A DNA stretch of 64,000 nt, from contig JACDOE010000004.1 of the NCBI GenBank assembly GCA_017656255.1, positions 124,001-188,000 on the forward strand, read 5' to 3'. The notes under the pieces were generated by a model, which was given only the letters and a program-made list of their open reading frames with translations, was not told the origin of the DNA and made no database searches. The position numbers and the translations under genes were made by a program. Positions 20,400-21,195 of this stretch are shown here, piece after piece; the first letter of the stretch is position 1; every line of letters begins with the position of its first letter. Source of the DNA: Bacillaceae bacterium. GTDB lineage: Bacteria; Bacillota; Bacilli; JACDOE01.

Positions 20400-20438
20400 G
20401 CAGACAAAGACATCCTTACAAAAAGGAGTGACATCGTG

Positions 20439-20711
20439 ATGGCCAAACCAAACGTCACCGTCTATACAAGGCCCACCTGAACAGACTGCCATGCGCTGAA
20501 AGAGTTTCTTTCACATCACCAGATAGAATTTCAAGAAATTGATCTCGGCACTCAACCTGAAAAAGAGGACGAATTGAAACAGAAAACCGGAACCCTTATT
20601 GTTCCGGCTATTGTGGTAGAGCAGCGTACATTTCTGGGACTTTTTAATAAAAGTAACGTTTTCATCGGCTTTGAACAGAACAGGTCTGAAATTGAAGCCC
20701 TGTTGCTGTAA
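20439..20711 (+). CDS. Glutaredoxin-like selenoprotein (in-frame TGA as selenocysteine)
   Basis: A 90-residue thioredoxin-fold protein if the TGA at 20478-20480 is read through. The sequence begins MAKPNVTVYTRPT-U-TDC: strand 1, then a U-x-x-C motif (U14, C17) at the exact place of the glutaredoxin CxxC. After it come HALKEFLSHHQIEFQEIDL, the cis-Pro in IVPAIVV, and FIGFEQNRSEIEALLL, the usual glutaredoxin end. The start is ATG behind AAGGAG. A SECIS-like hairpin begins 16 nt after the TGA. Conventional gene finders would miss it or call a 14-residue stub. It should be a thiol-disulfide reductase with high reactivity; the downstream neighbour is a YbaK-type deacylase. A TGT-to-TGA mutation or sequencing error is the alternative. 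Confidence 0.8.
20491..20516 (+). promoter_or_regulatory. Bacterial SECIS-like hairpin
   Basis: Upper stem UGAAAG/CUUUCA (6 bp) closes the 5-nt loop AGUUU; below it a 3-nt bulge (CGC) and a short AUG/CAU stem. The loop G is the second loop base and lies 23 nt after the UGA. This meets the published bacterial SECIS criteria: apical loop of 3-14 nt with a G in its first two bases, 16-37 nt from the UGA. Confidence 0.65.
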
Positions 20712-20748
20712 AGGAACGTTTATCCGATGAATGAAACGAGAGGTTCAT

Positions 20749-21195
20749 ATGATTCCAATAAAATCTTGTCTGGAAAACACTTCTTTCTCATACGAACTGA
20801 TTAACCATGACACTCCCATCCGCTCGGCTCAGGAAGGGGCGGACATCTTTGGGATTGAGATCGGCCAGACCGCCCCGGCACTCATCGTCAAAAAAGATAC
20901 CGAATTCTTGGGGCTCATCGTATCGGGAGGGCACCCGAAGACCGATTTTAAACAAGTAGCGGCACAACTGGGATGTTCAAGCCTGAAACTGGCAAATCCG
21001 AATGAAGTCAAACAGGTGACCGGTTTCGAGCCGGGAAATGTTCCCCTGATCGGGCTAACGATACCCTGTGCCGTTGATCAACGACTTCTGGCCTATTCGT
21101 TTGTCTACGGCGGAACCGGGAACCCAACCTGCACCTTAAAAATAGAGCCGAAGGCGTTGCTTGAACTGAATCAGGTGATCACCACGCTAAAATGA
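20749..21195 (+). CDS. YbaK/EbsC family aminoacyl-tRNA deacylase
   Basis: A 148-residue YbaK/ProX-type editing protein. Members hydrolyse mischarged tRNA, classically Cys-tRNA(Pro). Typical strands are seen: HDTPIRSAQEGADIFGIE, LIVSGGHPKTDFKQVAAQLG, and TGFEPGNVPLIGL. The start is ATG (MIPIKSCL) five bases after GAGAGG; a longer form begins six codons earlier. It starts 37 nt after the selenoprotein gene and overlaps the next gene by four bases, so the three are likely one transcript. Substrate specificity is not determined from sequence. Confidence 0.85.
   Translation: MIPIKSCLENTSFSYELINHDTPIRSAQEGADIFGIEIGQTAPALIVKKDTEFLGLIVSGGHPKTDFKQVAAQLGCSSLKLANPNEVKQVTGFEPGNVPLIGLTIPCAVDQRLLAYSFVYGGTGNPTCTLKIEPKALLELNQVITTLK

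What the first reader, a model, noticed from the sequence alone, without database searches (positions are those of the whole stretch)
20439..20711. Unannotated glutaredoxin-like selenoprotein with a SECIS-like element
An in-frame TGA occupies exactly the first Cys position of a thioredoxin-fold CxxC (T-U-T-D-C). The frame on both sides reads as one coherent glutaredoxin, with the cis-Pro and C-terminal features in place and an AAGGAG start. The hairpin after the TGA (6-bp stem, loop AGUUU with G second, 23 nt from the UGA) meets the bacterial SECIS rules. Gene callers would stop at residue 13. Selenocysteine is uncommon in aerobic Bacillales. A random nonsense mutation would have to hit the one codon where Sec is functionally expected. 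No sel genes are in the window.
Basis: partly seen in the sequence, partly recalled or inferred. Interest (0 to 1): 0.92.

Follow-up and report, generated by a model that had tools for sequence, protein, structure and literature searches.

The report
Hidden selenium glutaredoxin missed by annotation
A small redox protein gene that looks cut short by a stop codon is almost certainly full length, because the bacterium reads that codon as the selenium amino acid selenocysteine; relatives elsewhere often sit beside copper-export pumps, which hints at a role in handling metals.

Summary
Confirmed. Window 20439-20711 (+) encodes a 90-residue glutaredoxin whose active site reads T-U-T-D-C, with TGA at 20478-20480. 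The genome holds the full selenocysteine machinery: tRNA-Sec (anticodon TCA), SelA, SelB, SelD (itself with an in-frame TGA), plus MnmH and a putative selenate transporter. Homologues carry TGA at the same codon in nine further distinct Bacilli loci and 13 Nitrospirota genomes, and Cys in over two dozen others. All 10 TGA genomes tested have SelB and tRNA-Sec; 16 of 19 Cys genomes have neither. The hairpin after the TGA is conserved at silent sites with compensatory changes, so it is very likely a real bacterial SECIS; judged on its own it would not be significant. Public annotation misses or truncates the gene in named Mesobacillus and Cytobacillus plasmids. The subfamily passes no NCBIfam cut-off. 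New observation: relatives sit beside CopA-type copper ATPase genes, abutting them in several Nitrospirota genomes, and near copA/csoR in many Bacilli. The window's own copy is not next to copA, so a copper role there is only inferred. Seleno-glutaredoxins as such are known (cGrx1). Protein-level proof (75Se, mass spectrometry) is lacking.

The parts
20423..20428 (+). Shine-Dalgarno AAGGAG, 10 nt upstream of the ATG
   Evidence: sequence
20439..20711 (+). Selenoprotein glutaredoxin gene, 90 aa with Sec14; stop TAA 20709-20711
   Evidence: translation; Pfam Glutaredoxin across the TGA; homologues; predicted glutaredoxin fold, pLDDT 84
20478..20480 (+). Sec codon TGA at the first position of the U-T-D-C active site
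   Evidence: TGA or Cys at this codon in the homologues read; TGA only in genomes with SelB and tRNA-Sec among those tested
20497..20513 (+). SECIS hairpin: stem 20497-20502 with 20508-20513, loop AGUUU 20503-20507, G at 20504
   Evidence: 13 TGA genes with invariant GAG-TTT-CTT codons; pair counts
20731..21195 (+). Downstream co-directional YbaK/ProX-like aminoacyl-tRNA editing domain protein (PF04073), possibly co-transcribed; not part of a conserved neighbourhood
   Evidence: no relative in the neighbourhoods of homologues read

Best explanation
A functional selenoprotein gene. SelB brings Sec-tRNA(Sec) to the UGA, directed by the hairpin that starts 16 nt after it, and the ribosome makes a 90-residue dithiol-type (UxxC) glutaredoxin. 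The selenolate of Sec14 attacks a disulfide or mixed disulfide on a target, and Cys17 resolves the selenenyl-sulfide, which is then re-reduced by a small thiol or a thioredoxin reductase. The recoding step is strongly supported by comparative evidence; the chemistry is inferred from the fold, the motif and the characterised seleno-glutaredoxin cGrx1. For the subfamily as a whole, a likely job is to keep thiols of copper or heavy-metal handling proteins (CopA/CopZ CxxC sites) reduced, or to protect the cell during metal stress. That is inferred from gene neighbourhood and is weaker for the window's copy, which has no copper gene beside it. The confidence given is for the selenoprotein claim; the copper role is put at about 0.45 for the group.
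For: Machinery: SelB 379 bits against cut-off 242; tRNA-Sec 68.8 bits, anticodon TCA; SelA 595 bits, SelD 417 bits with an in-frame TGA in SKSGUGCK, MnmH, putative selenate-binding protein TIGR04553, all above cut-off. TGA homologues at 49-62% identity in the same class, in Nitrospirota and on named plasmids. SelB and tRNA-Sec in 10/10 TGA genomes and 3/19 Cys genomes, Fisher p 1.4e-5 without correction for kinship. SECIS: in 13 TGA genes GAG-TTT-CTT is invariant while silent sites of other conserved codons vary; over 23 TGA genes 93.8% of stem cells pair, 4 of 7 pairs have double changes, and 0/500 shuffles reach the observed paired fraction, number of such pairs, or covariation score. Sec/Cys swap between close relatives L032 and L034, with a relic hairpin sequence in the Cys gene. 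Copper link: CopA 1-550 nt downstream, same strand, in 12 of 13 Nitrospirota TGA loci; CopA within 5 kb in 3 of 10 Bacilli TGA loci and near 21 of 28 Cys loci; 0 of 28 control loci. Precedents: cGrx1 is a native selenoprotein with U(C)PxC (PMC7642778); human Grx1 speeds reduction of Atox1 and may modulate ATP7A (PMC5039574).
Against: No protein-level evidence. The single-sequence hairpin is not significant. Three TGA genes (L094, L102, L104) have no G in the first two loop positions and one (L101) lacks the hairpin. The window copy, L027, L029, L031, L033 and the Cytobacillus plasmid copies have no CopA within the flanks read, so copper is not a universal partner. The copper controls are partly from one genome.
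Confidence: 0.96

Rival explanations
1. The TGA is a nonsense mutation or sequencing error in a Cys glutaredoxin; the gene is a pseudogene.
For: The codon differs from TGT/TGC by one base and Cys homologues exist.
Against: The same TGA is in many independent genomes and plasmids with intact downstream frames; it co-occurs with SelB/tRNA-Sec; the hairpin is under RNA-level constraint.
Confidence: 0.01
2. A real selenoprotein, but a general thiol reductant (for example for methionine sulfoxide reductase or peroxiredoxins) with no special tie to copper.
For: The closest solved relative cGrx1 is proposed to reduce MsrA (PMC7642778); the window copy lies between unrelated genes and there is no CopA or CsoR in the 64 kb window.
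Against: CopA/CsoR neighbourhood in two phyla and on plasmids, for both Sec and Cys forms.
Confidence: 0.45
3. UGA is read through with Cys or Trp, or translation restarts after it, rather than Sec being inserted.
For: In-frame downstream starts exist, and annotation pipelines use them for relatives.
Against: A restart would lose the first strand and the catalytic residue; conservation spans the TGA; the genome has Sec machinery and the gene has a SECIS.
Confidence: 0.02

Closest known systems
Selenoprotein glutaredoxin cGrx1 of Clostridium (Alkaliphilus) oremlandii, PDB 7C10
   Same: UxxC glutaredoxin with Sec at the first active-site position; best hit by sequence (E 1.2e-9) and by fold (TM 0.74/0.88, 36% identity)
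   Different: Motif UPxC rather than UTDC; lacks the extra segment near residues 64-73; proposed partner is MsrA, no copper link in the passages read
UXX-star glutaredoxin-like (seleno)protein families (NCBIfam NF041212, NF041211, NF047338, NF041114)
   Same: Small glutaredoxin-like selenoproteins; 15-50 bits
   Different: All below curated cut-offs (66-100 bits); other active-site motifs, e.g. UxxT for family 1 (PMC13188914)
Glutaredoxin-like YruB (TIGR02196) and NrdH (TIGR02194)
   Same: Best-scoring NCBIfam models, 57 and 53 bits
   Different: Below cut-offs of 88.6 and 85.8 bits
Glutaredoxin (grxC) of staphylococcal csoR-copZ-copA plasmids
   Same: Cys member of the same broader family (34-35% identity), next to copZ-copA-csoR; grxC is listed with csoR, copZ and copA among genes enriched in commensal S. 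haemolyticus (PMC6747052)
   Different: Cys instead of Sec; no SECIS

Membership tests
Bacterial selenoprotein | In-frame TGA aligned with Cys of homologues | tested here: met
Bacterial selenoprotein | Genome encodes SelA, SelB, SelD, tRNA-Sec | tested here: met
Bacterial selenoprotein | bSECIS: 3-9 nt loop, 4-16 bp stem, G in first two loop positions, 16-37 nt from UGA (PMC13188914) | tested here: met
   6 bp, loop AGUUU, 22 nt; comparative support
Bacterial selenoprotein | Selenium shown in the protein | not testable with these tools
   needs 75Se labelling or mass spectrometry
Glutaredoxin (PF00462) | Above Pfam gathering score; thioredoxin fold; cis-Pro | tested here: met
   58 bits against 22.9; AF2 model and PDB matches; invariant V55-P56
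Glutaredoxin (PF00462) | Glutathione-dependent reductase activity | not testable with these tools
   enzymology needed; the organism's low-molecular-weight thiol was not checked
UXX-star (NF041212 and relatives) | Score above curated cut-off | tested here: not met
   50.2 against 66 bits and lower for the others
CopA-linked glutaredoxin group (proposed here) | copA/csoR adjacent | tested here: not met
   met for 12 of 13 Nitrospirota TGA loci and many Bacilli loci, not for the window's own copy

The most novel reading that the evidence does not exclude
A distinct, so far unnamed group of seleno-glutaredoxins is a dedicated partner of CopA-type copper exporters in Nitrospirota and Bacilli, keeping the CxxC metal sites of CopA/CopZ reduced or passing copper, with Sec and Cys versions exchanged between lineages and carried on plasmids; the window gene is a member that no longer sits in a copper operon.
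Probability: 0.45. Interest if true: 0.65.

Novelty: new variant of a known kind. Interest (0 to 1): 0.52.

Why it matters
It adds an overlooked selenoprotein to Bacillota and Nitrospirota, shows that standard pipelines drop or truncate it (the annotated CDS starts after the TGA in Mesobacillus and Cytobacillus records), and gives a concrete lead tying selenium to bacterial copper export, which parallels the reported action of human Grx1 on Atox1 and possibly ATP7A.

Tried and rejected
Pseudogene or sequencing error: rejected by the recurrent TGA. Filing under UXX-star, YruB or NrdH families: scores below cut-offs. Hairpin energy as evidence: rejected, z = +0.64. Phage origin: two viral-contig scans found none, and the phage hits are NrdH-like with under 45% identity. 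Other selenoproteins in the window: none credible. A functional tie to the downstream YbaK-like and HhH-GPD genes: not conserved in the neighbourhoods read. The promoter/terminator scan gave only chance-level hits.

Full report
Observation. The frame 20439-20711 (+) is open except for TGA 20478-20480 at codon 14, preceded by AAGGAG 10 nt upstream of the ATG. With the TGA read as Cys, Pfam Glutaredoxin covers residues 6-63 at 58 bits, so the similarity runs through the TGA on both sides. It fits the published bacterial SECIS rules (PMC13188914), but on this single sequence it is not more stable than shuffles.

Machinery. The genome (3.41 Mb, 36 contigs; the window is on contig C4) carries on contig C8 mnmH, selD, a TIGR04553-type putative selenate transporter, selA, tRNA-Sec and selB in one cluster. 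ARAGORN calls the tRNA as Sec with anticodon TCA. selD itself has an in-frame TGA in its SKSG-U-GCK motif, so the genome has at least one other likely selenoprotein gene.

Homologues. No other genome of the same genus, family or order is held. In 399 genomes of the class, 28 (own included) have matches at E <= 1e-10. Six besides the window's own have TGA at this codon with an intact frame to the C-terminus; the rest have TGT or TGC there. Three Nitrospirota MAGs found by peptide pattern and 10 further Nitrospirota genomes in a sample of 296 also have TGA; one there has Cys. Named records: Mesobacillus foraminis NZ_CP033045 and several Cytobacillus plasmids have TGA (near-identical copies counted once below), and their annotated coding sequences begin after it, are called hypothetical, or are absent.

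Co-occurrence. Of 29 genomes tested, all 10 with the TGA form have SelB and tRNA-Sec; 16 of the 19 Cys-form genomes have neither, and three Cys-form genomes have both. Fisher p = 1.4e-5, not corrected for kinship. In the tree the closest Sec/Cys pair is L032 (TGA) and L034 (Cys), support 95/86. Most other branching is weakly supported, so the number and direction of Sec/Cys changes is not claimed.

SECIS. In 13 TGA genes (10 Bacilli including the window, 3 Nitrospirota) the codons GAG-TTT-CTT (loop and stem) are invariant, whereas other conserved Leu, Pro and Gly codons vary at silent sites. Cys genes do not keep this sequence, except L034 and L080, which look like relics. Over 23 TGA genes the 7-pair helix is formed in 93.8% of cells; four pairs show changes on both sides; no shuffle of 500 reached the observed paired fraction, number of doubly changed pairs, or covariation score, and all slid versions score far lower. 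The shuffle control does not remove relatedness, but the slid control does keep it. Exceptions: L101 lacks the hairpin; L094, L102 and L104 lack G in the first two loop positions.

Protein. The AlphaFold2 model (pLDDT 84, shallow alignment of four) has the glutaredoxin order of strands and helices. The best PDB match by sequence and by fold is 7C10, cGrx1 of Clostridium oremlandii, which the authors state is a native selenoprotein with a U(or C)PxC motif (PMC7642778). The window protein differs by the UTDC motif and by an extra segment around residues 64-73, which the Nitrospirota members also lack. No NCBIfam model reaches its cut-off for the window protein, so the group appears unnamed there; the other 11 aligned members match the same models.

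Neighbourhood. CopA-type copper ATPase genes (TIGR01511 above cut-off for the three examples scanned) lie 1 to about 550 nt downstream on the same strand in 12 of 13 Nitrospirota TGA loci, and beside the single Cys locus there; the thirteenth, L100, is on a 2.2 kb stretch. In Bacilli, CopA is within 5 kb for 3 of 10 distinct TGA loci (L030 with CsoR and CopA at under 0.4 kb; L032 and L078 at 3.5-3.8 kb). No CopA or CsoR gene was found in the 64 kb window. The window copy is followed by a tRNA-editing domain protein and an HhH-GPD DNA glycosylase.

Mechanism. Shown by comparison: the UGA is used as a sense codon for Sec with a SECIS. Inferred from fold and precedent: Sec14 is the attacking and Cys17 the resolving residue. 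Inferred from neighbourhood only: a role in copper or heavy-metal handling, parallel to human Grx1, which speeds reduction of Atox1 and may modulate ATP7A (PMC5039574). I put the selenoprotein claim at 0.96 and the copper role at about 0.45 for the group, lower for this copy.

Novelty. Seleno-glutaredoxins have been known since at least 2006 (PMC1794560). The new parts are this unannotated subfamily, its presence in Bacilli and Nitrospirota with a near-identical SECIS core, and its copper-operon association, which none of the papers found here reports. The library searched holds only open-licence papers, so prior description elsewhere cannot be excluded.

Noticed in passing
L017:8170-17513 (own genome C8): Compact selenium cluster: mnmH, selD with an in-frame TGA, putative selenate ABC transporter, selA, tRNA-Sec on the opposite strand, selB.
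   Followed up: partly
L034 and L080: Cys-form genes that keep most of the SECIS core sequence (AAAGAGTTTCTT), apparent relics of a Sec ancestor.
   Followed up: partly
L094, L102, L104, L101 (Nitrospirota): TGA-form genes whose hairpin loop lacks the usual G in its first two positions, or (L101) that lack the hairpin altogether.
   Followed up: no
L067:5331-5945, L068:5351-5965, L091:2190-2828: A class I SAM-dependent methyltransferase gene lies next to or near the TGA glutaredoxin in loci without copA nearby.
   Followed up: partly
NZ_CP085391, NZ_CP085393, NZ_CP107028, NZ_CP097350, NZ_CP033045: Nearly the same selenoprotein gene is annotated in different wrong ways: start after the TGA, short hypothetical protein, or no gene.
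   Followed up: yes
window 20731-21195: A YbaK/ProX-like aminoacyl-tRNA editing domain protein follows the selenoprotein gene by about 20 nt.
   Followed up: partly
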